DNA of 54,751 nt, taken from NCBI GenBank assembly GCA_030695905.1, contig JAUYOL010000020.1, forward strand, positions 1 through 54,751, read 5' to 3'. Both the position numbers and the translations under genes were made by a program. This DNA comes from Candidatus Omnitrophota bacterium. Its GTDB lineage: Bacteria > Omnitrophota > Gorgyraeia > 2-01-FULL-45-10. Shown piece by piece: positions 1 to 47,700 of this stretch (position 1 is the first letter of the stretch; the number at the start of each line of letters is the position of its first letter). Under the pieces are notes generated by a model. It saw nothing but the letters and a program-made list of their open reading frames with translations. It searched no databases and was not told the DNA's origin.

Positions 1-141
1 AGTTTAAGGACCTACTGCCTTCAGTCATTCTGCATGCTTGCACAAACAATCCCAAAGACCCTCGCGCATTCTTAAGAAACCTGATCAAAGCGCAAGCTGA
101 GATATCGAAAGAACCTGAGTTTAAGGACCTACTGCCTTCAG
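1..141. repeat. Terminal direct repeat, left copy (identical to 54611-54751)
   Basis: These 141 bases are identical to the last 141 bases of the window. Both copies lie inside the 39-residue (117-bp) coding repeat, and the reading frame is preserved across a join. The exact length suggests a k-mer overlap from assembly of a circularised graph path. Confidence 0.95.
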
Positions 142-3100
142 CCATTCTGCATGCTTGCACAAGTAATCCCAAAGATCCCCGCACATTCTTGAGAAACCTG
201 ATCAAGACGCAAGATGGTGCTGTCGCGCGGCAGAATTTTGCATCAAGCCCGGGAGAGACGGACGCTGTTGGCCATTTGCGTAAAGCGGGACCTGATGAAA
301 CACCGGAACGGGGCGACCTGGAGCCGGGTGGGCCCAGCCGCCGTTTTCTGAAACAACCCCAACAACCTAAGAACGATGAGGTGGCACCAAAAGGACCATC
401 CCCGGAAGCACACACAATTAAAAAGACCGTTTATGGGAAAACATATGAGTTGCCGAAAAGAGTATATGACAATGTACGCCTGGCACGGACTGAAGATGCG
501 AGTGATATTGATGTTCTCTCCAAACTGATTTGGCATGCTGACGGGCCTAGCCGCGCGAAATTCTACGAAGAAGAGATAGAAAATAAGAGAGCTGATGTCA
601 GAAAGAATATTTGGGTATATTGTGATGACGCCGGCAAGGTGCGGGGATACATATATGCAACGTTTTTCCCGGGCATTAAATCGGCGTCTATTTGGGAAAT
701 TGCAGTTTCCAAAAGAATGCAGGGGCGGCATATTGCAAAGGCGCTTATGTTTGTAGCTATGGAATACATGGAGAACGTTTTTTCAGCTACAAAATTCGAT
801 ACTTGGCCGCTTGATGAGAGTAATAAAGTAATCACGCATCTGATCGAAGAATTTGGATTTAAATATGCTGGGCATGAAGGTCTGGACGGGCCGGCTTATT
901 ATAAAGCCGATTTTACCAGTTATATAGAGGCCAAATATGAGCAGGAATATAAAGAATTTGCGAGTGCTCCTGTTTTGCCCCAGGCAATTCGATCCATTAT
1001 TCTTGCCAGAAGGTCAACTCGGCATTTTGATCAAGGCAAGATACCGGATAAAAGGACCATAAAAGTATTAGTGGATAATTCGGTGGCGACTTTGTCGCAG
1101 CGCTATGATATGGAGGATATTGAGGTATCTATATATGACGACCCAATTATTCGGCAAAGACTTGGCACCGAGATTAAAGGCTTGCGACAAGAAGGAGAAT
1201 TAAAAAAAGATGTCCAGCCGCAGCCTAAAGATGCTCCTTTTTCTATCGTAGTTTCCGTAAGAGAAAATGCTCTAAAAGCCGATAGGGGCAAAACGCTATC
1301 CGTTGCTGGCATGCTCATTGAGACTATATTGTTGTCCGCTACATCTGCAGGAGTTGACTCGCTATGGATCAGCAGCTTCGATGAGTTAAAAGCAAAAGAG
1401 ATATGCGGTGATATGTCTTCACCGTTCATACCGATTGCAATAATTCCTCTTGGATATAGGTCACAAGACCCGAGGCCTCCCAGGCGGCTGCCTGCCGAAA
1501 TCAGGATAAAAAATGAAACATATTCTCACAGCTCAGGTTTTGATGAAGAAGCATTGCTGAGGGAGGCGAGAAAAGTAAATAAAATAAATGGTGCTGTTGC
1601 TGCGGCAGAGATTGGTAATAGCGGGAATGGTGAATTAACGGCTGTTTTATCGGATAATCCGGTATATCCTAAAGCAATAAATATATTATCTCACAGATAT
1701 GGCAATGCGCCGCCACCGGAACTTTCAAACAATGGCATTGATAGTGCTTTAAAGGGAGCAATAGAGGCAGCGCAGTGGGCGCCGTCAGCACGGAATCTCC
1801 AATCTACGGATTTTATTATAATAAAAGAAAGGGATCGGATAAAAAATATTTGCAAGGCTCTTGCAATAGACCATTCCACCATAAAAGCTATGATGATACC
1901 TATAGGAAACATAGAAAGACTCAAGTTAATAGGTAAAACTAACTCGAATAATACGAGTACAGAGGCGCGTGCGAGAGAATTATTTATATATCTTGACGGA
2001 GGCGCCGCAACACAAAATATTCTATTTTCTCTTGTTTCAGCGGGATATTCGGCGGAATGGATATTTAAAAAAGATATAAGCGGCCATATATTTAAAGAAC
2101 TCGGCATACCTGTGGATCTTCACGAATATTTAGGGGTTATTACTATTAAAGATGTAAATGTGGACAAAGGTACCACCCAGACCGGGCCGCTTCCTTTAGT
2201 TGATGAAAAAGGCGACGGCCATTTGCGTAAAGCGGGACCTGATGAAACACCGGAACGGGGCGACCTGGAGCCGGGTGGGCCCAGCCGCCATTTTCTGAAA
2301 CAACCCCAACAACCTAAGAACGATGAGGTGGCTCCGGACACGGCCGTGCGTGTAATCTGTAGTGACGGATGGGACGAGGGTCAAACAGCAGAAGTGGCGG
2401 AATTTATGGTGGATGAGGGATTGATAGAAGTTGGAGATAAAAACGCTCCCAGAGAAAGTCTCGTCACGGCAGCGATGGCTCAACTGCATCCGGGCCTGCT
2501 GAATGCGCAGGAAAGAAGAGATACTGTTTTTGCTGCGCTTAAAGGAAATAAAGTCGCAGGTTGTGTTAAAACTTCTATGGATTTGGATCGCGAGGGAGAA
2601 GTTGTTGAAACTACACTCGTGGATTTGTATGTAGGTAAAGACTATAGGGGAGATGGGGTGGGGAAGGGATTAGTAGCCGCGGCGGAGGATCATTTACTTA
2701 AGAAAGGCATAACAGCATATATGGTTACTCCGGAGGATACCGACGAAGCGCAGAAATTTTGGAAGGCTCGCATTCCGGGAAGATCCCGATCTCTTGATAA
2801 AAACGGAAGACTGGTTACCAGTATGGTCCCACTGCGTTGGGGCATAAAATATAATATCAGTATCCCTGAAATTAAGATAGGGAATTTCGAAGTGCAATGG
2901 CCCGATATTAAAAGTACCATGGATGAAACAGGGCAATATATTACACCGGAGCAGGAAAGAATCGTTTTCCATGCCCTTCATGCGAAGAATCTTACTCTGG
3001 ATCAAAGGAATGAGATCCGTTATTTTATCATTGAGAAATATAAGTGGCTGATCGATGTGGTCATCAAGAAGAAGATGCATATACACGGCAAGCAGGAAAA

Positions 3101-5009
3101 GAGAGATGCCCGCGAGGAGGGAGAGCTGGGCATATTGCGCGCTATAGTTACGTTTGATCCCAAAAGAGGCAATAGGTTTTCCAGCTACGCCAGCTTTTGG
3201 ATACGCAGTGCGCTTCAGAGATCGCCTCTCCTGGAAGAAACAATCCATAAGCCCGCATATTTAGAAGAATTAATAAAGAGATATAAAGATGTGCGGAGAA
3301 AATTATGGCAAGAGTTGAGGCGCGATCCGACATTAAAGGAAATTGCGTCCAAACTAAGGGTGCCATTAAAAATAGCAAAGAAGATTCAGGCTGCTGCATC
3401 CAGGATGAAATCTCTCGATGTTTTTACGCGCAATCCAAAAGCAAGATTCGAGATGCGCAGAAATATTGTGCCGGCAAAAGAGGAAGATTTAAAGGATATT
3501 TCACCGGAAGATATTCCCGGCCTTTTAAGCTGCCTGGATTCCCGCGAAAGAGAGGTTATCGAAAAGCGTTATCGTGTGGGAGCGAAAAGAGATATTTCTT
3601 ATACCCGGAAAGAGATCGGGCGTGCCTTAGGGGTGACAGAGGAGCGCGTCCGTCAGATTGAAATAAAAGCATTGTGGAAGATGCAGAAACAGGCAAAGGC
3701 GATGAGTCTGGTAGCGAATCCGGATAACAATGGAAATGGGAATAATGGAAATGAAAAACTCAGACCACGCATGACAAAAGACAAGGCGCCCTCTGATATG
3801 CCGCTGGGCGCAAGGTTCGCCGTCACTCCGGAAGATTGGCTTGGATCAAAGGACAAGCATAGCGCCACCCAACCGGAGAAATTGCATAGAGGCCCGCGGG
3901 CTGACCAGCCGCTCAACGGCATCGGCGCAGTCGGGCCGATAAAACCGGAAGACGAGAGTGCTGATGGGGTGACGCCAAAAGCAGCGGATACCATTTTACC
4001 CTCCGGGAGGGGAAATGGTCCACAAAATATGGCTGGAGTGTCCCAAGGTGACACGTCCCCGCGGTCAACGAAGATGCTGGAAATGGAAATTAATGGCAAA
4101 CCTTACGCTATGGCAGCAATAACAAAGGGCCATAAGGCCAATTATATCGACTTGTTGGATGCGATAGCCGAAGAATTTGGTCATGAGACTGGCAGGCTGC
4201 TTCAACGGAATAGCACGATTAAGATAGTCAGGGGTGGGGAAGAATATTTTATGCAAAACACAGGAATAGACGGTAGAGTGCTTGGATATTTTTCATTACT
4301 GAAAGCAGGTGACTCTATAACTATAGTTAATGGAAAAAGAAGGGGGGTTCCCACTATTCACTTTTTGCGCAATATTGTCGATACAAAAGAGTTGACACAG
4401 AACATGATCGAAGGAATATTGTCCGCGCTCTTCTCGAACAAGGAAGTTACACTTGCTTTTAACAAAAAACTTAAAGGATTAGAGTCCGCCGAGTTAAGGG
4501 CGATGATGGCACAATTAAACAAATGGAAGGAAGCGACAGCACGAAAAAATCCTAAAATGAGGGAACTATTATCCAGGTTTAGAGCTTTTGAATATGATGA
4601 CCTCAAAACAGAGCTCAACAAACGCGGCATAGATGCTAATGCCGAAAATAGCCTTATTTTCAATTATGCGCCAAAACCTGAAAATGAGCCGTTAGATAGC
4701 CCCGGCTCTGCCATACGGCCCGTATATATTATTGAACAGGAAGAAAGTTTCGCGGAAAATTATTATTATCCGTTATTGGAAATGGTGACTATTTCTGTGG
4801 CAAAAGAGTTGCTGCAGTGGAACGACGCAGAACTTCGCGCCGCATTGGCCGCATCAAATATCGATACGGAATTTTTCGGTATAGACCCGGTTATAGATGA
4901 AAAGACCGGCATTCTGATATTCAAGGTCCTGCCTAAGATGGAGCGATACGATAACAACAGCCGCATCGACCGCTACACACGCCTCCTGCAATTCATCCGC
5001 TCAGCCTAA
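1..5009 (+). CDS. Giant multidomain protein, C-terminal part (5' end outside window)
   Basis: The frame is open from base 3 to the TAA at 5007-5009, so the true start lies upstream; a TTG at 189 is only an internal leucine codon of the repeat. Domains by nucleotide position: 39-residue tandem repeats (3-215); a linker cassette (270-385); a GNAT-like acetyltransferase (about 460-950, with IAVSKRMQGRHIAKAL as the acetyl-CoA loop); a nitroreductase-like half (about 980-1540, RRSTRHFDQGK and GYRSQDPRPP); a second nitroreductase-like half (about 1660-2160, AAQWAPSARNLQ); a second copy of the linker (2217-2332); a second GNAT (about 2340-2830, LYVGKDYRGDGVGKGL); a sigma-70 core (2841-3710); a low-complexity linker containing DQPLNGIGAVGPIKP; and an uncharacterised C-terminus. 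Codon use matches the neighbours. The role is unknown. It is a member or part of the same family as the gene at 44746. Confidence 0.9.
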   Translation, partial: FKDLLPSVILHACTNNPKDPRAFLRNLIKAQAEISKEPEFKDLLPSAILHACTSNPKDPRTFLRNLIKTQDGAVARQNFASSPGETDAVGHLRKAGPDETPERGDLEPGGPSRRFLKQPQQPKNDEVAPKGPSPEAHTIKKTVYGKTYELPKRVYDNVRLARTEDASDIDVLSKLIWHADGPSRAKFYEEEIENKRADVRKNIWVYCDDAGKVRGYIYATFFPGIKSASIWEIAVSKRMQGRHIAKALMFVAMEYMENVFSATKFDTWPLDESNKVITHLIEEFGFKYAGHEGLDGPAYYKADFTSYIEAKYEQEYKEFASAPVLPQAIRSIILARRSTRHFDQGKIPDKRTIKVLVDNSVATLSQRYDMEDIEVSIYDDPIIRQRLGTEIKGLRQEGELKKDVQPQPKDAPFSIVVSVRENALKADRGKTLSVAGMLIETILLSATSAGVDSLWISSFDELKAKEICGDMSSPFIPIAIIPLGYRSQDPRPPRRLPAEIRIKNETYSHSSGFDEEALLREARKVNKINGAVAAAEIGNSGNGELTAVLSDNPVYPKAINILSHRYGNAPPPELSNNGIDSALKGAIEAAQWAPSARNLQSTDFIIIKERDRIKNICKALAIDHSTIKAMMIPIGNIERLKLIGKTNSNNTSTEARARELFIYLDGGAATQNILFSLVSAGYSAEWIFKKDISGHIFKELGIPVDLHEYLGVITIKDVNVDKGTTQTGPLPLVDEKGDGHLRKAGPDETPERGDLEPGGPSRHFLKQPQQPKNDEVAPDTAVRVICSDGWDEGQTAEVAEFMVDEGLIEVGDKNAPRESLVTAAMAQLHPGLLNAQERRDTVFAALKGNKVAGCVKTSMDLDREGEVVETTLVDLYVGKDYRGDGVGKGLVAAAEDHLLKKGITAYMVTPEDTDEAQKFWKARIPGRSRSLDKNGRLVTSMVPLRWGIKYNISIPEIKIGNFEVQWPDIKSTMDETGQYITPEQERIVFHALHAKNLTLDQRNEIRYFIIEKYKWLIDVVIKKKMHIHGKQEKRDAREEGELGILRAIVTFDPKRGNRFSSYASFWIRSALQRSPLLEETIHKPAYLEELIKRYKDVRRKLWQELRRDPTLKEIASKLRVPLKIAKKIQAAASRMKSLDVFTRNPKARFEMRRNIVPAKEEDLKDISPEDIPGLLSCLDSREREVIEKRYRVGAKRDISYTRKEIGRALGVTEERVRQIEIKALWKMQKQAKAMSLVANPDNNGNGNNGNEKLRPRMTKDKAPSDMPLGARFAVTPEDWLGSKDKHSATQPEKLHRGPRADQPLNGIGAVGPIKPEDESADGVTPKAADTILPSGRGNGPQNMAGVSQGDTSPRSTKMLEMEINGKPYAMAAITKGHKANYIDLLDAIAEEFGHETGRLLQRNSTIKIVRGGEEYFMQNTGIDGRVLGYFSLLKAGDSITIVNGKRRGVPTIHFLRNIVDTKELTQNMIEGILSALFSNKEVTLAFNKKLKGLESAELRAMMAQLNKWKEATARKNPKMRELLSRFRAFEYDDLKTELNKRGIDANAENSLIFNYAPKPENEPLDSPGSAIRPVYIIEQEESFAENYYYPLLEMVTISVAKELLQWNDAELRAALAASNIDTEFFGIDPVIDEKTGILIFKVLPKMERYDNNSRIDRYTRLLQFIRSA
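3..215 (+). repeat. 39-residue coding tandem repeat, left end (about 1.8 units)
   Basis: The period is 117 bp. One full unit runs 3-119, and a second from 120 decays after NLIKTQDG near 215. Unit signature: FKDLLPS(V/A)ILHACT followed by NPKDPR(A/T)FLRNLIK. The units are near-identical at DNA level, which indicates recent expansion or homogenisation. Predicted character is helical. No named repeat family was recognised with confidence. Confidence 0.9.
270..385 (+). repeat. Linker cassette repeat, copy 1 (116 bp)
   Basis: Encodes a Pro/Gly-rich linker with the core GPDETPERGDLEPGGPSR. It is nearly identical at DNA level to 2217-2332 (one difference seen). It separates the tandem repeats from the first GNAT domain. 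Confidence 0.9.
2217..2332 (+). repeat. Linker cassette repeat, copy 2 (116 bp)
   Basis: Near-perfect copy of 270-385. It separates the second nitroreductase-like half from the second GNAT domain. The same linker bounding different domains suggests recombination at linkers. Confidence 0.9.
2841..3710 (+). other. Sigma-70 core domain embedded in giant protein (copy 1)
   Basis: Region 2 is visible as FDPKRGNRFSSYASFWIR, followed by SALQR (nt 3153 onward). A region-3-like helix-turn-helix follows (DPTLKEIASKLRVPLKIA). Region 4 reads LDSREREVIEKRYR and then EIGRALGVTEERVRQIEIKA, matching the -35-binding helix-turn-helix of primary and group 2 sigma factors. Region 1.1 is not apparent. Known sigma factors are stand-alone cytoplasmic proteins, so this location is unusual. 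A homologous copy lies at 50318-51190. Confidence 0.9.
3901..3953 (+). repeat. Short linker repeat DQPLNG(I/F)GAVGPIKP, copy 1
   Basis: The same linker peptide and very similar DNA occur at 52136-52188 and 53163-53215 in the gene at the other end of the window, tying the two giant sequences together. Confidence 0.85.
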
Positions 5010-35141: not shown

Positions 35142-38100
35142 TTGAACACACAAATAAAACCGCATAGAAAATTTCCTCTTGCTATCAGAGTAATAGCTGC
35201 TATCCTGATTGCCGCTTTCTTTGCACAGGACATCGTATGGGCAAACCCGGATTGCCTTCAGATCCAGCTTCGCGCCAAACAAGATAATTTCAAGCCTTCA
35301 TTCTATTCGCAATGTTTATTGAGAAGCACAGACCTGATGGCTATTTCGCGCGCCTTAGAATTGTTAGGCGCAGAATATCAAGAAAAGGTTAATGCTAAAT
35401 TTGGAAGTAACGAGATGGCTTTTGCTTATGCGGAAGTTTTTAATACCGCGAAGGGCGTATTACGCGATTTTGATAATAAGAAGATACTCGAGGTGGGTCC
35501 GGGATACGGTATTTTCATGCACACCATGAAGAAATTTTCCGAAGAGACAGGAGTGAGATTAGAATTGACGGGCCTTGAGAAAGATGAGGCGAAGGCAAAA
35601 TACGCGAGGGATGAAGGCAAGTTAAACGTAATAACCGGTGATATTACCAAAGCTCCGGAGCAGTTGAAAAATGAGCAATTTGATGCTGTTGTAGTGCGAT
35701 GGCCTTACTTTGAAATATGGGGACAGAAATATATATTGGACTACATCAAAGGTTGCTATGAGATGACCCGTCCGGGCGGGGTGTGTATCATAGATACAAA
35801 TGTGCATTATCTGGCTGCTCGAGCATATAGCCTTGAGCGTATCTGCTTCGATGCTGGTTTTGATGTTGAAGGTAAAAAATCCTATACTGATAGCAAATTT
35901 TTAATTCTTCGAAAACCGCAATCCGGGAGGAAGAGAATACACCCGGTTTTGAGAGTTTTGATAAGTGGTATTGTTTCGAGTGTTCAAAGGGCGGCAGAAA
36001 AATCGGGAAAGAAAAAATATGGAATGATCGATATCAGCGAAATTAACGACGCTGATTCATTGTCAGATTACATTGATAAGCTGGAGAAAAAGTCCGGGTA
36101 CGGGCAGCTTTTAGATGCAACGCGGCAAGAGAAAGAATTCCTAAAGCCGTTATTCGATCTATTATTTAAAAAACTTGAAAGCGATTTTGAGGATTCTGGC
36201 GATTTTGTGGCGTTATGTAAACAAGTGCTGAAGAACAGTGACGCCTATGACCTGCGGGCAAGGCTGAATAATGAAGATGCTGCTTTATTCAACGAATTCA
36301 GAAAGTTAAAGCGCAAAGATAAGGATATCCCCGTAGGGCTTTACGGCCTGCTATTATTCTACCTGACCGCCAATCCAAAACCTTATTTCCGTCATCTTTA
36401 TAAAGAGATAATGAAGGCGCGGCCGATAACAGAGCTTGCTTTGGGCAGGAAAGGTATATCGTTTCGTACACGCGGTGACAGTATAGTTCATCTTTATCCT
36501 ATGAATCTTTTGCATGAGGGGCCCGACGCCGTTTACAGGAAGTCATTGAATGCAATGGTCGGAGAAAAAGAACCTCATGATGTGAGGGGTAAGCCCGACG
36601 CAAATGATCTGAAGATTAAACGCGCGGTAGAGATCGGGAGAAGACATGTCGCAACATATAGGCGCTATAGCTCCGAAGAAAGGGAAGCGCTTGAAAAAAG
36701 GATAGCTAATTTCGAAAAGAAAGCCACGGTTCTTGAATTAAGAGATATGAAGACATTTCTTCTTTTCTCTGAGCCGGGACTTAACATAGTAAGGCCAATT
36801 CATGCGGGCAGAACCAGGAGCGCCCACTATCTTTCGAAGCGCCTTATAGATACTCTTAAAAAAGACGATGACGAAGATATGAAATTACTCTGGATCCTGC
36901 TTAATTTTAGCCAGGGGGTCGTTGATACATATGAGCAGATGATGAAAGAAGAAGGCAGTCCACAGGATATTCAAAAGAAGCTCTCCGGGCTTAATGAGCG
37001 GTTTTTCGAATTGGAAGACACTCATTTGCTGCCCCCGGAAAAACTGAAGGAAAAGCTTGCCGCGTTGATGGAGGAGGATACCCTTATCAAGTATAAAGAT
37101 GTCTTTGTGGCAGCGGAAAACGAGGAAAAAGAGGTTGATGTTCTCATGCAAGCCACGCACAATGTCAGGGACAGACTGGCTATTGAAGAAATGGAATTTG
37201 CAGCAAGTCTGCTTCGAGTACTACTTGTTAAACAGTCTGAAAACGCGATAATGATGTGCCGTCATCTGCTATATAGGTATGAAGGGCTGGGCCTGCATTC
37301 GGAAGCGGACAGGGCGTATAGAAATTTAGATTATCTCGTATCCACACTTCAAGCTTATGATTATGGGCGTCTGCCTTTTGAATTTCAGGAAGAACTGATA
37401 TTTACCGCTCTCGCTTTTGAACGATGGGATGAGGTTAAGAATGAGTTAAAGACACTTTTAACGGGCAAAGGATATACGAGAAATGTGAGAGTGGCAGAAT
37501 TGGAAATATTAAAAAATGATATTATTACCGCCGACTTTATAAGTAAGCTTATGCATGCGCTGCACGCCCAAAAAGCCGCGGCTACTCCGGAAAAGTTGCC
37601 TATTGTAGAAGATGCTGAAAAGTTTGCGATAAAGCTGTTAAGCGATTATTCTAAGAACGGGTTTAGCGCCCTAAAGGAGCAGGATATTGACCCGGATTAT
37701 GATACGCCGCCTGGCCCGATGCCTGCCAGGGGTCAATATAAAGGCAATAAGGGTAAAGAGCTTAAGGATATCAGCGCGGGAGTCTGCATTCTTACCTCCC
37801 TTTGCGCGATCGATTACCGGATCGCTTTGATAGCCGGCGCAGCGCTGGTCGTGATAGGCGTCCTTGGATTCATCGATAGTGTTGCCGGATCACCAGACCA
37901 TATTTTGAAAGCTATCAGAAATACCCCCACGTTTGAATTTCCGTTTAACGGCAAGGTCTTCATGGACTATAAACGGGAAGCCGAATTTGATAAAAACAGT
38001 CAGCTAAGAGTGGTTCTTGCGAAAGGCCTGCTCGAGACGGATATTTTTAATAAAATGCAGGCACTGATTAGAGCGGTTAAAGGCAGCGATAAGCAGGTTG

Positions 38101-41100
38101 AAATAATGATACCACTGGGCGCGGTCAATTGGATCTATCGAAGCATCGTTGATCCAATTAAGCATTTCTTTAATTCGACGTCATGGGACGGTATTTATGT
38201 CGACACGTTGCGAAAGGCGGGTGTGAATTATCGTATATATAATCCCGATGGAAGTTTGAAATGTCAGGGTATCCTTAATAATTCCGGTAAATTTCAGGTA
38301 GTGATAAGGCTGTTCGATTCAAAAAATAATTTCCTGTGGTATGTTAAAAAATCCCATTCATTTCAGGTGGGCCTGTCCGGCCCATTACCGGCTCCGACCT
38401 CTATAAAAAATTTACCCTGGGGCGGCGAATGGTATGAATTTAAGAATGGGGAAGGCAATAGGCGCGCCGAATTTACCATGATTAGTTCTGCCGGTAAATG
38501 GGTGCCTTTGTACAATAAAGAATATGGCCAGCTGATAGTGGTTCATGTGGATTTGGAAAAAGGCTCAGAGGACGCCAAAGAAGATTTTTTTGTTATACGC
38601 CCGGACACATCGTCATCGTCATTGCTTATCGATAAGCAAGTCGGTAAGCTCGGCCTGGCGCAAGAGCACATATTCTACTTTTTAAATCGGAATTCTGTGC
38701 CTGTACCTATGAGACTTGCCTTCCCCGAATCTGTAGAAAATCCCATTACAGCGATGCAAGTTATAGGACTTGTTAAATCCGCGGTTGGTGCCGAAAAAAT
38801 AATCCGCACTGATGGCGCGCATGTTTATAAAAAATCGCAAAGTGTTTGGGCACTTGAACCCGACTTTACAGATGCAGATTACAAGAAAGCGATAGCTAAA
38901 CCTTTTATCCTGCCTGCCGGGAAAAAATACGAACCAAGGGTTTTTACTATGCATAAGTCAAGTGCGTCATTACCGGATTTTCTTATATGCGATCCCGGTA
39001 GCGAAGATATTGTCATAATCGAGATCGGAAGGCATGCAGTCTTATCGACTGCCAGGAAGATGCTAAATGGTTTGAGAGCGTTAAAGCTGGTAGGGCCGAA
39101 GATTTTGGGCGCTCGTAGTGGCATGCCTAAGACCGCTACCTTTTATTCGGAGGAAATAATTCATGGAGAAGATCCCGTGGATTATAAAATTGACGGCAAG
39201 CAGAATACGGCTATGAAAAGCGCGGTCAATACGTTGATAGAGACATCGCGTTTCGAACGGTCGCGTATTAAAAAAGGATATACACGGGATTTTGTGGCGA
39301 AGGCGCAGGGGATCGTTAATCTTGTAGAGGAATCTCACCAATATAGGAAAGACGCCATACCCTTGCCGGCCAATATCAACGTTAGGACAACATTCAGATT
39401 GTATAGTGACGACATTTCCTGTTTTGATGTTGTTTTGAAGTTTGCTAAACAAAAAGGTGGAAGGTACTACCTCAATAAGAACGGTATACAAATTTTAGCG
39501 AAGTCCATTACATTGCAGGAACTTTTTGGCGCGGCAAATCAGCGCCCAAGACCAGCATTGTCTTCACCAGGCAAGCCTTTCCTGGGTGCTTTCCAGAATA
39601 CAGCCATTCCGACCCTTGGGGTTTTGAAACAAAAAGATTTTAATGAAATTGCTTCTGTTTCCAGAGAGAGCCTCGCGGACATGCTGGCATTTTTGAAGAC
39701 TATAGAGTTTGCCACTGATGAAGGGATTGCCCACTTGTTGGATTCCGTTTTTACGCAGGGTCCGCCTGAATATGTAAAAAAGATGAAGGATACATTTTTC
39801 TACATGTTTATTCTTGCCAGAAGTAATTCCGCCTTCAAAGAGTTATTATTGCGATCACTCCAATCTTCAAATCTTGATCTAAAAGAAATAAAATTCGCGC
39901 TATCGGATGCCCTTCCGATAAATTCCGCCAGATACTTTGATGCCAATGCAAATACAGCAATAATCGTTTTAAACCGCGGATTCTTTGATATGGACGAACA
40001 CATTTACATGACCTCCCCGGAATTTAGTTCGGCTGTTTATCATATCCGAGCAGAAAGGATTATGCATGAATTAGCGCATAGCAACCTTCCTGATATGGTT
40101 CCAGGCGATTATAAACCCTCCGAAGAAGAACAAATAATTCAGAGCTTGGACAGGCCCCTGAAAATCGTTACGGATGAAATTGGCATGCAGGATAAGATAA
40201 AAAAGTTGAGGAGAGTATATCCCAAAGCAAAGGAAGCAATGCAGCATTCCGGACATATTTTTGATGCGGCGTTCAGATATAACCAGCAATCAGAGCCTTC
40301 GCTTCTTGCCAAAAGGATCAAGGTCTCTGAAATTCTATATCTTGGGGAAGATGCCGGACTTACAGATCTTACAGTTGACGTAGGGATGGAAGATCTGCCG
40401 GAAATATTATATATACTTGCCACTATAGTAAGGCCGTTTGATGCCTCTGGTGTCAAGGTGCAGCCTTCCGGTGCCGGGCCAGCTACTATTACAGTAATTG
40501 ACCGCATAGGTAACGCCCTCACAGAATATCAGTTTAAAGCCGGTGCGGATGAGTATAAAAGGTTAATTGATAATATAAAATCACGGGTGGATGCCGCAGA
40601 CGAGATAGTCAATAAACACCTTAATTTAACTCTTCATATAGCAGAAGGTGAGGGTGGAGAGGTAAAGATTGAAGGTGAGTCCCTGGCCAGCCGCTATCTT
40701 AGCACAATCAGCAACGGGGAAGATGACCCGGAAGAATTACGCGGTGCTAAAAAATTCGGGCCGGGAGCGGCAAGCAAGGATGACCCCGCGTTTTCTGCTG
40801 TAAAAAGCGCCTATCAGTATAAAGCAGAAATAGAAAATATACATGGTGGCCAGCAGCCGCTTACTATGCGTTTTTCTGAAGCAATGCGTGGAGGCGACTT
40901 GTATGTAGAGGGCATTACAGCGGTAAGGGATGGGCCCGGAACAGCCGCTATCGGGGATTTCAACTTTACAATACGTGCGGATAATACACTATGGCTTCCT
41001 ACGTATCATCCCATAGGTTTAATAGGCTCGGAATCATGGATAAAAAACCATAATAAAGGTATTAGCCAGACATTTCTGCAATGGGTCAATGATTATGCGC

Positions 41101-44100
41101 TGGCCCACAATGTGAATAAAATTATTATTGAAACATATGAGTTGTACGATCTTCACGCGTTTAGAAGATCTTTTGTGGATACAGTCAGGATCGGGGGCAG
41201 GGTTTACGATATAAAAGAATGCGAGCAAGCCGGCATATTTGACAGAGTAACGGCCGGGAGATTGATAGCTTATGATACTGAAAGAGGGCAGAGACTTGGA
41301 AAGATAGAGCTCGAACATGTTAAAGGGCAGGGGCCATCCTACGGGGTGCTATATTCGGAGAGCGAAAAGCTGGCAGTCGGAGATTCTATATGTATAGATA
41401 AATGTATAATACATCTTAATGACAAGCCGGTCGCATTCATCGGGCAGGCAGCCGATGACATATCAGTGGTATTTTCAGGAGCACCTAAACCTTTACAGCA
41501 AAAAGAAGAGCCCGCTCTATTGCCAGGGCCGACCGTAAAAACAGCAAGAAAGATTATGCCTTCCCGTGCAAGCAGGACATTAGTAGAACGCGCAGTAATA
41601 GCCATCCGGAGCATGGGCCATGGAGAAGAAATATTTGACGTTAGGCAAGACGTATTTAGTTTTAAGGACAGGATATTGATGGTAGGTGATGATGCTTGTA
41701 AGTTTGTCAATATATACAAAAAAGTCAAACATGAATGCTCGAAAGAGTTATTCGGTGACTTAGATGCCCTACTGGAAGATGTTCTTGCTGTTTCGAATAA
41801 TGGACCGGTGAGCATGAGTAAGGTAAAGCGGTGGATTTTTAGCTTAAGTAATATTTTGAAGCGCATCAAGATTAATAGGGCCAGGCTGAAATATATCCAA
41901 AATGAGCTAAGCTCGTATTTTGAAACGTATGAATCCGAGATGAATGTTCGCTTCAATACGCTCGATGACGTGGCGAAGCAATTAGATGCAGATATGTCAG
42001 ATTTGGAGAAAAGAAAAGAATCTGCTAAAGCGAAAAAAGAGGACAAGCTCATTGAAGAGTTGATTGGTCTTCAATGGCATATTCAAGCCGAACGCGCAGA
42101 AGTGCAAAAGCAGTTAGATGCTATGGTTGGCATTTATAGGAAAGAAACATCGAAAAAAGACGGCGACCTGTTACTTATCGACAGTCTTATATCGATGTTA
42201 ACTACGGATATATTAAGATTAGAAAATAGGCTTAGATTTGCTAAAGGCGAACCGCGCGCCAAAAAAGTTAGTATCGTTTCGATCTTGAAAAGAATTACCG
42301 CGGCCGATAATGTTTACCTGGATGAAACGCGCCTTCCTGTACTAAAGGTCAGAGGCGAGGATCTCTCTATCCGGTCCGCGCTTAGTAATATTGTCATAAA
42401 TGGGTGTCAGGCCGCAAGAGAGAAAGACGCACAAAAGGCCGGCGTAAAAGTTTCCTTGAGGCAGGATGGCAACTTCGCGGTGATAGAGATCGAAGATAAC
42501 GGAAACGGGATTCCAGATGATAAACTCAAGTTCGACTCACGAACCGGAAGGCTAACGCTATATAATCTAAATAATACTACCAAAAAGCGCGGGACAGGCT
42601 TAGGAACGACAGAGGCATGGTATGTCCTGGTGGAGGATATGGGCGGGACTATCGATATTAAGACAAAGCCCGGCGAAGGAACGAAATTTACGATCCGCCT
42701 GCCCCTTGCTCCTACTTCTAATATCCAACCGATGGGGCCGGGCGCCGCTAATGCAGATAGCCCTGAATTTTCGAATAATGGGGATGATATTTTACTTATC
42801 CCTGCGAAAGTACGAATGAAAGGAATGGAAGGCAGGACATGCAGGATTTTTGTGCCGCTGGAGTACCGACAATACTTACCGGAGTCCTTCCATGTTGCGG
42901 CAGAGGGGAATATACAAGGTGGATACGTTGTGGCAGAGGATAAGAATACAATGAGTGTATATTCCGAAAAAGACTATCGAGAGAGGCTCAAAGAAATCGA
43001 AGGATCGAATGATTATACGCGTTTACAGTTATTTACAACGCGTTCTTTAGCTATTAAAAAATTGAATCCAAAAGGTGAATTTGCCATCCCATCCGCATTG
43101 CTGCATAGCCCCGCGGGTCTCGTAAATAGTTCCATAACATTAGCTATTTACTTGAACTGGGATCCTCAAAGCGCGGCTATTAAGGCAATGATTGAGGAGA
43201 TGTCCGCGGTATTTGACGGGCATAAAATTAAAAACAAAAAATTATTAAGTGCTTTGATCGAGCCGGAAAAGCATCCGGGGCAAAGTAAGATATTGATCCA
43301 CATGGGTAACTATTTCTTTAAAATGCTTCTTCTGGATTATATCGCTACTAACTATCCAAATCTGGATAATTCACGCCTTCACCAATTTATCAATAAAGCG
43401 CAGGCCATATCGGAGAGGGACGCCATATTCAAGAAGCATGAATCAATTTATAAAAGATATATTAAGTTGCGCCCCGCCGTCCATTATTTAAAATGGAATT
43501 TTATTGCCGCACTGCTCGGTAGCCTTATAGCCGATACCGGTGATGCCAAAAATGCTTTTTTGATCGGCAGGCATTTTTCAAAGGATTATTTTGATAGTTT
43601 TAAGGTGGGTAGAAGTATCCCTGTAGCAAAAGCACGAAAAAATGAAAACAGGCCTTTTGCTTATCGCAGGGATATCTCAAAGATCGCGCCCATCATAAGA
43701 CCTTTTATAGATACATCCAAACCGTTACAGGAGATTTTGGAGACAGAGTTATCTCCTACAAATTCTGACAGAATAGGCTGCTCTGCATCAAGCTATACAA
43801 ATGCCGCGCTGGGTGACGCTATCCTGGATTTTGTTGTGACAACTGAAACGTGGGAGAAGTTCGGTTTTAAAGAAAAGGTTATTTTTTATCAAAATGCTCA
43901 CAGTAATCTGGTTAAAGGAGATTTTATCGGAAGTATTATGATGACGATATTGGGTAAGACGAAAGATGAATTAACCGCGGAAGACATTGAGCATGGGCAG
44001 AATCTTTTTGAGTCATTGGTGGCTATAGTCTACAAGTCAAACGGCGGACTCGAAGGCAATGGCCTGGCGAAGGCGCGCGAATTTGTTTTCAAAATGTTCA

Positions 44101-44753
44101 TAGATCATGCCAAGCACCGGCAGGCAGAGACAAAGCCCGCAGAAGAACGCTCGAATAATATTGCGGTCCTGCACAAGCTTTTTCAGGAAGCTAATATATC
44201 TCAAGCCTCGCGAGTATTAATATCAGAGAATTTACTTATAAGTGACGGAAATACTAATGAGTTGGATGAAGCCAGGCTGGCCCTAAAGCCGTTACTGGGG
44301 AGCGGCAAGGTGGCGATATTAAAGCCTGATGAGATACGAAGACATGCCATAAACCGCAGAGAAGACAAGTCAAAATTAGCCATTGTATTGAGCCGCGAAG
44401 ATTTTGAAAACAAAGCTATATGGAATGGTTCTGAAAAAGAGACTTCGCTTAAGGCGAGCCTTATTATCCTGGATGATAGGCTGACCGGCGCCAACTATCT
44501 CTATATAGAAGGGGTGATAGGGCTCGCGTACGCCCTTATGTCCAATAATAAACGGGCGATAAGCGCTTATTACCGGATATTGTCAGGCGCGGCCATAGAT
44601 GATGCGGTATTAAAGCTTCTCGACGATGGCCGTGATAATACTGTGGCATTTGCATTGCGGGCCATATTGAAGTTCAAGCCTACAGAGAAGATGAGTGAAG
44701 AAGAATTTAATAGTTATAGAATAACGATCGAAAGCGCTCTCATAAATGCATAA
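35142..44753 (+). CDS. Giant multidomain protein with signal peptide, methyltransferase and histidine-kinase-type ATPase
   Basis: Complete, 3203 residues, TTG start just after an in-frame TAA at 35130-35132. N-terminus: a basic segment, a hydrophobic stretch and AQDIVWANP, an export-type signal (residues 10-35). Then: SAM methyltransferase-like (about 85-240; ILEVGPGYGIF, RPGGVCIIDTN); long helical stretches; a membrane-type segment (about 877-912); a zinc-protease-like HELAH at 1642-1646; a folded unknown (about 1915-2105); coiled coil (about 2260-2370); and a HATPase domain (about 2377-2527) with N box NIVINGCQAA, G1 DNGNGIP and G2 GTGLGT. Helical C-terminus. Linkers contain GPGAA...PEFSNNG. 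No HisKA phosphoacceptor or receiver domain was recognised. Function unknown; it belongs with the giant genes of this lineage. Confidence 0.93.
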   Translation: MNTQIKPHRKFPLAIRVIAAILIAAFFAQDIVWANPDCLQIQLRAKQDNFKPSFYSQCLLRSTDLMAISRALELLGAEYQEKVNAKFGSNEMAFAYAEVFNTAKGVLRDFDNKKILEVGPGYGIFMHTMKKFSEETGVRLELTGLEKDEAKAKYARDEGKLNVITGDITKAPEQLKNEQFDAVVVRWPYFEIWGQKYILDYIKGCYEMTRPGGVCIIDTNVHYLAARAYSLERICFDAGFDVEGKKSYTDSKFLILRKPQSGRKRIHPVLRVLISGIVSSVQRAAEKSGKKKYGMIDISEINDADSLSDYIDKLEKKSGYGQLLDATRQEKEFLKPLFDLLFKKLESDFEDSGDFVALCKQVLKNSDAYDLRARLNNEDAALFNEFRKLKRKDKDIPVGLYGLLLFYLTANPKPYFRHLYKEIMKARPITELALGRKGISFRTRGDSIVHLYPMNLLHEGPDAVYRKSLNAMVGEKEPHDVRGKPDANDLKIKRAVEIGRRHVATYRRYSSEEREALEKRIANFEKKATVLELRDMKTFLLFSEPGLNIVRPIHAGRTRSAHYLSKRLIDTLKKDDDEDMKLLWILLNFSQGVVDTYEQMMKEEGSPQDIQKKLSGLNERFFELEDTHLLPPEKLKEKLAALMEEDTLIKYKDVFVAAENEEKEVDVLMQATHNVRDRLAIEEMEFAASLLRVLLVKQSENAIMMCRHLLYRYEGLGLHSEADRAYRNLDYLVSTLQAYDYGRLPFEFQEELIFTALAFERWDEVKNELKTLLTGKGYTRNVRVAELEILKNDIITADFISKLMHALHAQKAAATPEKLPIVEDAEKFAIKLLSDYSKNGFSALKEQDIDPDYDTPPGPMPARGQYKGNKGKELKDISAGVCILTSLCAIDYRIALIAGAALVVIGVLGFIDSVAGSPDHILKAIRNTPTFEFPFNGKVFMDYKREAEFDKNSQLRVVLAKGLLETDIFNKMQALIRAVKGSDKQVEIMIPLGAVNWIYRSIVDPIKHFFNSTSWDGIYVDTLRKAGVNYRIYNPDGSLKCQGILNNSGKFQVVIRLFDSKNNFLWYVKKSHSFQVGLSGPLPAPTSIKNLPWGGEWYEFKNGEGNRRAEFTMISSAGKWVPLYNKEYGQLIVVHVDLEKGSEDAKEDFFVIRPDTSSSSLLIDKQVGKLGLAQEHIFYFLNRNSVPVPMRLAFPESVENPITAMQVIGLVKSAVGAEKIIRTDGAHVYKKSQSVWALEPDFTDADYKKAIAKPFILPAGKKYEPRVFTMHKSSASLPDFLICDPGSEDIVIIEIGRHAVLSTARKMLNGLRALKLVGPKILGARSGMPKTATFYSEEIIHGEDPVDYKIDGKQNTAMKSAVNTLIETSRFERSRIKKGYTRDFVAKAQGIVNLVEESHQYRKDAIPLPANINVRTTFRLYSDDISCFDVVLKFAKQKGGRYYLNKNGIQILAKSITLQELFGAANQRPRPALSSPGKPFLGAFQNTAIPTLGVLKQKDFNEIASVSRESLADMLAFLKTIEFATDEGIAHLLDSVFTQGPPEYVKKMKDTFFYMFILARSNSAFKELLLRSLQSSNLDLKEIKFALSDALPINSARYFDANANTAIIVLNRGFFDMDEHIYMTSPEFSSAVYHIRAERIMHELAHSNLPDMVPGDYKPSEEEQIIQSLDRPLKIVTDEIGMQDKIKKLRRVYPKAKEAMQHSGHIFDAAFRYNQQSEPSLLAKRIKVSEILYLGEDAGLTDLTVDVGMEDLPEILYILATIVRPFDASGVKVQPSGAGPATITVIDRIGNALTEYQFKAGADEYKRLIDNIKSRVDAADEIVNKHLNLTLHIAEGEGGEVKIEGESLASRYLSTISNGEDDPEELRGAKKFGPGAASKDDPAFSAVKSAYQYKAEIENIHGGQQPLTMRFSEAMRGGDLYVEGITAVRDGPGTAAIGDFNFTIRADNTLWLPTYHPIGLIGSESWIKNHNKGISQTFLQWVNDYALAHNVNKIIIETYELYDLHAFRRSFVDTVRIGGRVYDIKECEQAGIFDRVTAGRLIAYDTERGQRLGKIELEHVKGQGPSYGVLYSESEKLAVGDSICIDKCIIHLNDKPVAFIGQAADDISVVFSGAPKPLQQKEEPALLPGPTVKTARKIMPSRASRTLVERAVIAIRSMGHGEEIFDVRQDVFSFKDRILMVGDDACKFVNIYKKVKHECSKELFGDLDALLEDVLAVSNNGPVSMSKVKRWIFSLSNILKRIKINRARLKYIQNELSSYFETYESEMNVRFNTLDDVAKQLDADMSDLEKRKESAKAKKEDKLIEELIGLQWHIQAERAEVQKQLDAMVGIYRKETSKKDGDLLLIDSLISMLTTDILRLENRLRFAKGEPRAKKVSIVSILKRITAADNVYLDETRLPVLKVRGEDLSIRSALSNIVINGCQAAREKDAQKAGVKVSLRQDGNFAVIEIEDNGNGIPDDKLKFDSRTGRLTLYNLNNTTKKRGTGLGTTEAWYVLVEDMGGTIDIKTKPGEGTKFTIRLPLAPTSNIQPMGPGAANADSPEFSNNGDDILLIPAKVRMKGMEGRTCRIFVPLEYRQYLPESFHVAAEGNIQGGYVVAEDKNTMSVYSEKDYRERLKEIEGSNDYTRLQLFTTRSLAIKKLNPKGEFAIPSALLHSPAGLVNSSITLAIYLNWDPQSAAIKAMIEEMSAVFDGHKIKNKKLLSALIEPEKHPGQSKILIHMGNYFFKMLLLDYIATNYPNLDNSRLHQFINKAQAISERDAIFKKHESIYKRYIKLRPAVHYLKWNFIAALLGSLIADTGDAKNAFLIGRHFSKDYFDSFKVGRSIPVAKARKNENRPFAYRRDISKIAPIIRPFIDTSKPLQEILETELSPTNSDRIGCSASSYTNAALGDAILDFVVTTETWEKFGFKEKVIFYQNAHSNLVKGDFIGSIMMTILGKTKDELTAEDIEHGQNLFESLVAIVYKSNGGLEGNGLAKAREFVFKMFIDHAKHRQAETKPAEERSNNIAVLHKLFQEANISQASRVLISENLLISDGNTNELDEARLALKPLLGSGKVAILKPDEIRRHAINRREDKSKLAIVLSREDFENKAIWNGSEKETSLKASLIILDDRLTGANYLYIEGVIGLAYALMSNNKRAISAYYRILSGAAIDDAVLKLLDDGRDNTVAFALRAILKFKPTEKMSEEEFNSYRITIESALINA
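42268..42722 (+). other. GHKL/HATPase domain within the giant protein
   Basis: N box near residue 2416, DNGNGIP from residue 2452, GTGLGT from residue 2484, and a final strand GEGTKFTIRLPL. These ATP-lid motifs are intact. Upstream coiled coil could act as a dimerisation helix, but a clear phosphorylatable His motif was not found. Confidence 0.88.
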
Positions 44754-47700
44754 TCAACAAAAAATTACAAGAGACAGAAGGCAAAATTTAAGGCCCGGGC
44801 TAAATGGGGTGGGGGAAACTTCCCCCCGAGTAGTGACCCTCATCCCAACCCGGGCTTTTATAATAAAAATAATATCAGTGATGCTGATAGCGGCGTTTGC
44901 CGCGCAGGATGTGGCGTGGGCGAATCCGGAAGTTTTTGAGCATCGGGCTTCGACGACTACTCTGCAGATCCCGTCTTTCTTCAGCCCCATGGACGCGCGG
45001 ACCGATAAGAATGTTCTCGAAATGACATTGCAATATATACTGAAGACGGTCGGCGATACAGAGCAGTTTAAATATCACCTTACGCCTAAAGTTGCCGGTG
45101 TAATGCTGGACTTCGAGTTTGATAAGGCGCGCAGAGAGGATGAGGACACGATAATCCCCTGCGGTGCCGCAAGCGACCGCTCAACCCGTCTATATGAGGC
45201 GGTTATAGGGTCCGATAATTCGATCAAAGAGTTGCGGCAAGCCAAAAAAGACAGAAGTGATAATGCTGCAGATAAAGGCAAAGTTAGCGCCGCGGTAAAT
45301 CCAATTAAAGAGCTGCCAACCCCAAAGCCCGCAGAACCTTCTGTGAAAATCCCTACAAAAGCCGAGTTTTTTGACATCGTAAATGAAAGAGCCATGAATA
45401 TTATTGCTCTTGCCGGAACTCATTTTATCGGCGGTAAAGCAATGGCACAGAGATCGCTCGATAAAATGATCCTGGATTTTAACAGAGAAACAAAGGCGGG
45501 GTATGTAAGTTCTTATGCGGTTGCCCTTACAAAAGTAGTTTTAGACAGGCACGGCGAAAAATTAAACTTTAACGCTATTATCAAACCTCTGGATGACAAG
45601 TTGCGCAAACATAAAGGGATATTTGTAAGAAAAAACTTACGAAAACACTTATTATGGGCCCTTGAATCCCAGGGTATTTTCGATTCGGATACCATAGAGC
45701 GGTTAAAGGCAGCCGCACAGGGAGGGGATTCCAGGATAAAATCTCTGAAAACTGTGCCTAACAAAACCCTTTCTTTCTTCAAGCGCTTCTGGCGCGATGA
45801 GCGGGGTGAATTATCATTGCCGCGGCTTATTACCAATCGCAGGAATCGCCACAATTTCGATCTTAAGGCAACGGTCAGCTATATCATTCCTTATTTTAAA
45901 GAACATAATAAGTTACCGGCCGAAACAGAACTTTCCAAAGCTCTTGGCCCTACTCAGCCGCTTTTTTCTAAACATATGCCAGAAATATTGGCTGAACTTG
46001 CGAGGCAAATTGAAGAGGAAGGATTTGACCCGGCTCTCCGCCAGGAGATAGGGAAAGCTATAAGCCTGCCTATACCACTCCAAAATGGCACGGATCCGGA
46101 TATAAAGAACATGATAGGGCGTTTAATCGATACGATCATATCTTTGCCTATCAGGAGTGAGGCATGTCTGGATCTTCTTACGGCGGCCATTAAGTTATTT
46201 AAAATAAAATCACCCAACTATGCACAGATACTCAGTTTGATTATTCAGGCACAACATAATTCTCCGACAATGAGTCAGGTAGGCGCTGTATATACTAATC
46301 CGGAGATGGTGAGAACGATAAATCGTATCAACAGGTCTTTTGAAGGATTGAAGAGCATTGTGGCGCAGGCCGGAGGAATAAAACTTCCCCCTGCAATAGC
46401 AAGAGGGAAAAAAGAAAAAGAACTGATTGAAAAGGCTATCGCGGAGCTGGAAGCGCCTGATTCCACAAGCGCAGGACTAATCGGGAAGTATCGGGTTGTT
46501 TCGGATATTTCCTTTATCCCGCACAATGAAAAAGATGTCGACAATGGGCAGATTGTGTTTACAGGTATAAATATAGAAGATCCTACAAGGCAGAAAATCT
46601 CTATTAGTATTGATGCCCAGAGGGCGCCACCGGGACTCTTCAGGCTTTTCCGGAGGACAAAACTAAGGAGAATAGACTGGCCTCTCGAAGATTTCCTGGA
46701 TAAGTTCCGCGGCCAAACCTTTCTTTTAAGCCCCAATCGTTACCATATAAACGGTATAGGCACAAGTAACTGTATTGCCATAGCGTATCCGCTTAAAAAT
46801 GACGATATAGCGTTGTTCCATGAAGTAGCTGAAGCGGCTGATTTGGATGTGTCCGGATACCTTAGAAGGGGCGATCTCGATGCTTATATAAATCGTGTCG
46901 ATAAGAAATACAGGCAAGACCCGGCTATGCTGCAGCATTATGCGTTAAGATTGTTCCAGCGCGAGATGTGGCCTAGGGACGATGGTCTCCTCACGCAGTT
47001 GATAAAAGAGATAGATTTGAACCATGGGGTAAGGCTGAAGAAGAGCGTTATTGTCAAGGGTATGTCGTTAAAAGAAAATGCATTTGCTGCAAGAGAAGCA
47101 TTTGAAGTGGTAGGTAACCAGATTCTTGCCATACTCGTGATCAAGGACAGGAAGGGGCTTGTAAATATAGAAGGCCCTGCTACCGAAGCAATTGAAGATC
47201 GGCTGACCCGCGCGTATAAGTTTATCGCACAACTCGAAAAAGAGGCTGCAGTAAATCCTGCAGGCATTATGACTCTTGATGAGATGATGAGAAGAAAATA
47301 TCACTATTTCATCGAAAACCACATAAAGGATTTGGAGGAATTGCCGAAACTTATAGTAAACGAAAATAAGATGTCTACTTCTCAACGCCAGCTTTTTATT
47401 GGAGATCAAGGCTTGATCCGTGGGGCAATAGATATTTTAAAAGAGCTAAAAGAGGTACTTGAAGTGAGCCTGGAACAGCCGGTACAGGCAACAAAGACAG
47501 TCTCGAATCCCAGGATGAACGGTTTTGTGTATCTGCCGCCGGTAGCAAAGATGTTGAAGGCTTTGTTCGCGGAAATCAGGATATGGTTTGAAGCGCTTTT
47601 TGATTTAGATATAGATGTTTGTAGAAAATTGCAGAATTCGATCGATTGTTTTAACAAGGTCTACATTCTCAATAGTCGGTTTATTGATTTCTTAGTTTTT

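What the first reader, a model, noticed from the sequence alone, without database searches (positions are those of the whole stretch)
2841..3710. Sigma-70 core inside a giant mosaic protein (copy 1)
Regions 2, 3 and 4 of a sigma factor are complete in appearance, yet they sit between a GNAT and an unknown C-terminus in a protein of at least 1,600 residues. Sigma factors are known as compact cytoplasmic proteins. A sigma core in a protein family that starts with an export signal could be a sequestered or released regulator, an effector acting on another cell's RNA polymerase, or a domain reused for another purpose.
Basis: partly seen in the sequence, partly recalled or inferred. Interest (0 to 1): 0.85.

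Follow-up and report, generated by a model that had tools for sequence, protein, structure and literature searches.

The report
Sigma-factor module in exported giant proteins
A Candidatus Omnitrophota bacterium carries, inside giant proteins that appear built for export, a domain derived from the bacterial transcription factor sigma-70; the same domain recurs in giant proteins across the phylum, where it seems to have kept its DNA-binding half better than its polymerase-binding half.

Summary
Window 2841-3710 encodes a sigma-70 region 2-3-4 core inside one uninterrupted ORF (3-5009, 1668 aa, 5'-open), between a GNAT domain and an unannotated C-terminus. Pfam r3 and r4 are clear, r2 only at threshold. 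An AlphaFold model has the sigma helices; its 50 best PDB matches are all sigma factors.

It is not an isolated oddity. Copies 1 and 2 belong to a distinct sigma-derived module ("type A") with its own N-terminal segment (LFxALHAxNL) and, outside this genome, a conserved tail (DHxDVYLxE). In 384 Omnitrophota genomes the 14 best matches all lie in frames of 1,668-57,756 aa. In all five type-A proteins whose N-terminus could be read (own copy 2, G412, G405, G393, and the compact 542-aa G184) a signal-peptide-like sequence precedes the module. Copies 1 and 2 show purifying selection.

Type-A modules keep the fold and -35-recognition residues better than core-polymerase contacts, though the statistics are weak. 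My best reading is a sigma fold reused as a DNA-binding module in exported mosaic proteins, probably acting on another cell's DNA. Export, target and recipient cell are inferred. The N-terminus of the copy-1 protein lies outside the window.

The parts
3..5009 (+). Giant mosaic ORF P0002 holding sigma copy 1 (1668 aa, 5' end outside the contig, stop at 5007-5009, C-terminus ...LLQFIRSA)
474..773 (+). GNAT-like domain 1 (weak)
   Evidence: P0002 aa 158-257 (Acetyltransf_9, below its cutoff; Acetyltransf_1 counts 2 stretches in the protein)
999..1457 (+). Nitroreductase domain 1
   Evidence: PF00881, P0002 aa 333-485; two stretches counted, the second around aa 580 onwards
2511..2765 (+). GNAT domain 2, directly upstream of the sigma module
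   Evidence: PF00583, P0002 aa 837-921
2847..3080 (+). Type-A module N-terminal segment of copy 1 (KYNISIPEI...ITPEQERIVFHALHAKNLTLDQRNEIRYFIIEKY)
   Evidence: 81% identical to copy 2 over the first 94 aa; dN 0.057, dS 0.84 (NG86) over 73 codons
3096..3218 (+). Sigma region 2, copy 1
   Evidence: at Pfam cutoff
3267..3422 (+). Sigma region 3, copy 1
3522..3689 (+). Sigma region 4 (helix-turn-helix), copy 1
270..385 (+). 116-bp linker repeat (99% identical to 2217-2332), brackets the GNAT-nitroreductase stretch
   Evidence: found only at these two places in the genome
2217..2332 (+). 116-bp linker repeat, second copy, upstream of GNAT 2 and sigma copy 1
44746..54750 (+). Giant mosaic ORF P0004 holding sigma copy 2 (3335 aa, 3' end outside the contig)
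44833..44931 (+). N-terminal signal-peptide-like segment of P0004 (IIKIISVMLIAAFAAQDVAWANPE)
   Evidence: E 1.2e-17; its core is the most hydrophobic 12-residue window of the protein
50326..51198 (+). Sigma type-A module, copy 2 (60% identical to copy 1)
50227..50267 (+). 41-bp perfect direct repeat, left border of the copy-2 cassette
51577..51617 (+). 41-bp perfect direct repeat, right border of the copy-2 cassette
35142..44753 (+). Third giant ORF P0003 (3203 aa), no sigma, same N-terminal signal motif (35154-35252), HATPase domain and a methyltransferase-like match below cutoff
1..141 (.). 141-bp exact terminal overlap with 54611-54751, inside a 117-bp tandem repeat coding a 39-aa unit; an in-frame join would make one 4957-aa ORF with both sigma copies

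Best explanation
Copies 1 and 2 are members of a sigma-70-derived domain family ('type A') that lives inside exported giant mosaic proteins of Omnitrophota. SHOWN by sequence: a sigma fold in two giant ORFs here; related modules in giant frames in several families of the class and in other classes of the phylum; a signal-peptide-like N-terminus in all five type-A proteins whose start could be read; purifying selection between the two copies. SUPPORTED but not proven: the module moves as a cassette (copy 2 is bracketed by perfect 41-bp repeats); core-polymerase contact residues of sigma region 2 are mostly replaced while the -35-recognition helix of region 4 is better kept and region-4 units are duplicated, so that the module works as a DNA-binding domain rather than as a true sigma factor. 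INFERRED: the giant protein crosses the inner membrane by the Sec route and reaches another cell, where its cofactor-dependent domains (GNAT, nitroreductase, methyltransferase) could work, and the sigma-derived module binds that cell's DNA.
For: Sigma fold. Family: the tree puts nine type-A modules of five genomes in one clade (95/87), apart from 31 standalone sigmas. Phylum survey: all 14 matches with E <= 7e-17 lie in frames of 1668-57,756 aa; ordinary-length frames appear only at weaker E, from 2.5e-15. Signal-like N-terminus in the same ORF as a type-A module: own copy 2, compact 542-aa G184, G412 with two modules, G405, G393; in four of these five its core is the most hydrophobic 12-residue window of the protein, G393 being the exception. 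The lineage motif ...F[IVL]AxD[IL][ASTV]WA[NYH]P recurs in 20 of 25 relatives, mostly in long frames, with small residues at -3 and Ala at -1 in most of those read. Residues: mean retention 0.33 at eight sigma-2 core-contact positions, 0.68 at seven region-4 DNA-contact positions. Region-4 or HTH amplification. Selection. Cassette borders.
Against: The contrast between lost core contacts and other conserved positions is weak (permutation p 0.055 for core contacts alone, 0.10 for all functional positions), and the contact lists are from memory. G229 and G343 keep WW and Q437, so some type-A members look more sigma-like. The signals were judged by eye, by the -3/-1 rule and by hydropathy, not by a trained predictor, and those of G184, G412, G405 and G393 miss the 19-residue threshold of 1.6 used for TM segments. 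No secretion or injection machinery was sought. Copy 1's own N-terminus is not in the contig. The own copies lack the conserved tail.
Confidence: 0.42

Rival explanations
1. A true sigma factor exported as an effector: after delivery into a bacterial prey or host cell it binds that cell's RNA polymerase and redirects or poisons transcription.
For: All three sigma regions present in order; some embedded modules keep contact residues well (G055, G005, G365c_1917; G229); neighbouring domains need cytosolic cofactors.
Against: In the type-A clade L384, E/Q406, E407, N409 and Q437 are mostly replaced.
Confidence: 0.15
2. Surface or extracellular DNA binding: the giant protein stays on or near the cell surface and its sigma and HTH units bind extracellular DNA for adhesion, biofilm or nucleic acid capture.
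For: Signal sequences; two arrays of HTH units in the same protein as the sigma module in G001; a Tiki/ChaN-like match, below cutoff, in the N-terminal part of G405.
Against: GNAT, nitroreductase and SAM-methyltransferase domains have no obvious cofactors outside a cytoplasm.
Confidence: 0.15
3. The giant proteins stay in the producing cell (signal used as a membrane anchor or not used) and the sigma module is a tethered or releasable regulator of the cell's own transcription.
For: Cofactor-dependent domains suit a cytoplasm; sigma factors normally act at home; copy 1's N-terminus is unseen.
Against: A charged N-side, a hydrophobic stretch and a signal-peptidase-like site predict N-in/C-out; no TM-like segment would bring the sigma back inside in G412, G405 or G184.
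Confidence: 0.15
4. Neutral or structural filler: sigma folds are captured and kept as helical building blocks without DNA or polymerase binding.
For: Heavy mosaicism, long branches, lost contact residues.
Against: Purifying selection; module conserved over several classes with an N-terminal segment and tail; recognition-helix residues largely kept.
Confidence: 0.13

Closest known systems
Sigma-70 family, group 1/2 (RpoD, RpoS, SigA)
   Same: Regions 2, 3, 4 in order; fold; much of the region-4 recognition helix
   Different: Far below NCBIfam equivalog cutoffs (114 bits against 354 for RpoD_Cterm); embedded in giant ORFs with export-type signals; own N-terminal segment and, in other genomes, a tail; many core-contact residues replaced
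Giant ORFs of Omnitrophota (PMC10066038)
   Same: Same phylum, giant length, few annotated domains, suspected role in predation or symbiosis
   Different: A word search of that paper's main text found no sigma domains (the word 'sigma' occurs once, in a company name); the extracellular domains it names are adhesin-like
MzaA, sigma-70-like protein of the MZA anti-phage system (NCBIfam NF041931)
   Same: A sigma-70 domain inside a larger protein; 100.6 bits to copy 1
   Different: Model of 726 positions; the match is far below its 800-bit cutoff; no giant ORF or export signal known to me
TAL effectors (from own knowledge)
   Same: Exported bacterial proteins that work by binding another cell's DNA
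   Different: Unrelated fold, type III delivery into plant cells; no homology tested or claimed here

Membership tests
Sigma-70 family fold | Pfam regions 2, 3 and 4 above cutoff, in order | tested here: met
   r4 and r3 clear, r2 at cutoff in the whole ORF and 26.9 bits (cutoff 24) on the excised segment
Sigma-70 family fold | Structure with region 2 and region 4 helices | tested here: met
   local matches, whole-chain TM-scores about 0.3
Functional sigma factor | Core-polymerase contact residues of region 2 conserved | tested here: not met
   mean retention 0.33 over eight positions in 15 type-A modules; copy 1 has D403, E406 and E407 but not L384 or N409; statistics weak
Functional sigma factor | -35-recognition helix residues conserved | tested here: inconclusive
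   mean retention 0.68; copy 1 keeps E585, R586, R588, Q589 but has E at 584
Functional sigma factor | Binds core polymerase and directs transcription | not testable with these tools
   needs purified protein
RpoD/RpoS equivalogs | NCBIfam trusted cutoff | tested here: not met
Omnitrophota giant protein family with N-terminal signal | N-terminal signal motif | tested here: inconclusive
   met for P0003 and P0004; copy 1's N-terminus is outside the contig
Omnitrophota giant protein family with N-terminal signal | Organism belongs to Omnitrophota | tested here: met
   AlaRS 62-75% identical to the nearest Omnitrophota MAGs

The most novel reading that the evidence does not exclude
A phylum-wide class of exported giant effectors in which a sigma-70-derived domain is delivered into other cells and acts on their DNA or transcription, with domains shuffled as cassettes between short identical linkers.
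Probability: 0.35. Interest if true: 0.92.

Novelty: new variant of a known kind. Interest (0 to 1): 0.74.

Why it matters
Sigma factors are textbook cytoplasmic subunits of RNA polymerase. A conserved sigma-derived domain inside export-type giant proteins across a phylum gives one of the few concrete handles on what the poorly understood giant ORFs of Omnitrophota do, and makes it testable whether these bacteria act on the DNA or transcription of other cells.

Tried and rejected
Plasmid: the 141-bp terminal overlap suggested a circle, but the contig carries recA (single copy in the genome), alaS, his and trp genes; no other contig carries that 141-mer. I could not decide between a repeat-caused loop and a real join; both are in frame. 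Recent capture of the host's own sigma: rejected, the copies group with modules of other families, not with the own RpoD or C33 sigma. Frameshift or chance ORF: rejected by codon-position bias and dN/dS. A single origin of all embedded sigmas is neither shown nor rejected (AU p 0.41); a second clade ('type B', G005 and G365) exists. ssrA-like degron for the Ala-ending C-termini: the predicted tmRNA tag is AAPLASVAL, no match. The second AF2 job (G184 with tail) gave pLDDT 67.0, too low to interpret the tail. Literature searches for secreted sigma factors and for sigma-70 in giant proteins found nothing relevant in the held library, which has no preprints. My count of Ala-ending C-termini (10 of 10) left out three giant ORFs that do not end so; corrected.

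Full report
1. The observation. The stretch 2841-3710 translates without a stop inside an ORF of 1668 aa that enters from the left end of the contig. Pfam finds GNAT, nitroreductase, GNAT, then sigma-70 regions 2, 3 and 4, then about 430 residues without a match. Region 2 only reaches its cutoff. PDB sequence search gives SigA, RpoS and RpoD. An AF2 model from ten embedded modules has mean pLDDT 76.6, and its 50 best Foldseek matches are all sigma factors. TM-scores over the whole chain are low (about 0.3), as expected for a flexible multi-domain protein with low pTM, so the match is local.

2. Where it lies. The contig is G000:C20 of a 1.82-Mb, 97.5% complete genome. AlaRS is 62-75% identical to the nearest Candidatus Omnitrophota MAGs. 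The contig bears recA as the only copy in the genome and ORFs that read as alaS, his and trp genes (own reading), so it is chromosomal. Its ends share an exact 141-bp stretch inside a 117-bp tandem repeat; an in-frame join would give one ORF of 4957 aa with both sigma copies. I leave open whether that join is real. The N-terminus of the copy-1 protein is therefore not known from this window.

3. Two copies. Copy 2 (50326-51198) is 60% identical to copy 1. Differences concentrate at third codon positions in the first 75 codons; dN 0.057 and dS 0.84 (NG86) over the first 73 codons, dN 0.39 and dS 1.6 over the rest, where dS is saturated. Both look coding and constrained. The copy-2 cassette is bracketed by perfect 41-bp direct repeats, and a 116-bp, 99% identical repeat brackets the GNAT-nitroreductase stretch of P0002, which suggests that domains move as cassettes.

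4. A family. In 57 related genomes the sigma query also rang in long frames of G001, G055, G016, G005 and G004. A query made from the N-terminal segment of the module found five of 384 genomes of the class: G000, G001, G365 and G358 in giant frames, and G184 in a 542-aa frame. With a wider alignment, in 384 genomes of the phylum, all 14 matches at E <= 7e-17 lie in frames of 1668 to 57,756 aa; frames of ordinary sigma-factor length appear only at weaker E, from 2.5e-15, mixed with some longer ones. A tree of 47 sequences puts nine type-A modules in one clade (95/87), and a second embedded group, type B, in another (100/99); several branches are long, and one clade of all embedded modules is not rejected. 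Members in other genomes share a tail DHxDVYLxE after region 4; copies 1 and 2 lack it. G405 and G358, from different classes, also share the sequence that follows the tail (seen by eye).

5. Export. P0003 and P0004 begin with a charged stretch, a hydrophobic segment and ...QDxxWANP. An alignment of five such N-termini found matches in 20 of 25 relatives, mostly in long frames; of 20 fetched, most show a small residue at -3 and Ala at -1 of a plausible signal peptidase site, and one (L162) was not recovered. Type-A carriers with a readable start: P0004; G184, 542 aa...SQILWIHSAYALRSES; G412, 2399 aa, two modules; G405, 2074 aa; G393. In P0004, G184, G412 and G405 the N-terminal core is the most hydrophobic 12-residue window of the whole protein; in G393 1.3% of later windows equal it. 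G412, G405 and G184 show no 19-residue TM-like segment at the threshold of 1.6, the signal itself included. G005 and G016, which carry other sigma types, also begin with the signal motif. These are hydropathy and motif judgements, not predictions by a trained tool.

6. What the module keeps. In 15 type-A modules, G408, G411, F419, F427, A431 and I435 (E. coli-style numbers mapped through the own RpoD) are kept in 87-100%, while L384 is kept in 27%, the consensus E at 406 in 7%, E407 in 20%, N409 in 13% and Q437 in 13%. Mean retention is 0.33 at core-contact, 0.50 at -10 and 0.55 at other conserved positions. The contrast is weak (p 0.055 and 0.10). Seven region-4 DNA-contact positions average 0.68. 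The contact lists come from my own knowledge. Region-4 units occur alone or in extra copies in C43 of this genome, G365, G412 and G413, and G001 carries two HTH arrays in the same protein as its module. This favours DNA binding over polymerase binding, without proving either.

7. Mechanism. The best reading is a sigma-derived DNA-binding module in an exported mosaic protein. GNAT, nitroreductase and methyltransferase domains need cytosolic cofactors, which makes delivery into another cell more likely than surface display; that step is inference. Seymour et al. (PMC10066038) report giant ORFs in Omnitrophota, a link to attachment in one species, and that their functions are obscure.

8. Novelty. 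Sigma domains and giant ORFs are both known; their conserved combination in export-type proteins was not found in the papers searched. I rate it a new variant of a known kind with high interest.

Noticed in passing
window 5007-5009 and 44751-44753; L012, L048, L049, L050, L052, L064, L187, L189, L190: Eleven of 14 giant or module-bearing ORFs with a readable stop end in Ala (e.g. FIRSA, ALINA, LLTAA, YLVAA, FAQAA), against 2 of 26 ordinary ORFs of the window; crude probability 1.6e-10, chosen after seeing the data. Exceptions: G055, G365a, G365c. The predicted tmRNA tag does not match.
   Followed up: partly
L061 (G365:C32), L062 (G365:C23): G365 carries eight sigma-like modules in giant frames: three tandem type-B modules in one 1700-aa frame, one type-A in the next frame, and four modules (type A and B) plus extra region-4 units in a 3581-aa frame.
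   Followed up: partly
L064:4824-6449 (-): G184 encodes a compact 542-aa protein: signal-like N-terminus, sigma module, tail; a tractable candidate for experiments.
   Followed up: partly
L063 (G358:C2), G229:C9: Sigma modules lie in open frames of 57,756 and 35,009 aa.
   Followed up: no
window 54500-54751 and 1-216: 117-bp tandem repeat coding a 39-aa unit (FKDLLPSVILHACTNNPKDPRAFLRNLIKAQAEISKEPE) at both contig ends.
   Followed up: partly
L012 (G000:C43): A fourth giant ORF of this genome (2499 aa) joins starch-synthase-like, alpha-amylase-like and sigma region-4 domains behind the same N-terminal motif.
   Followed up: partly
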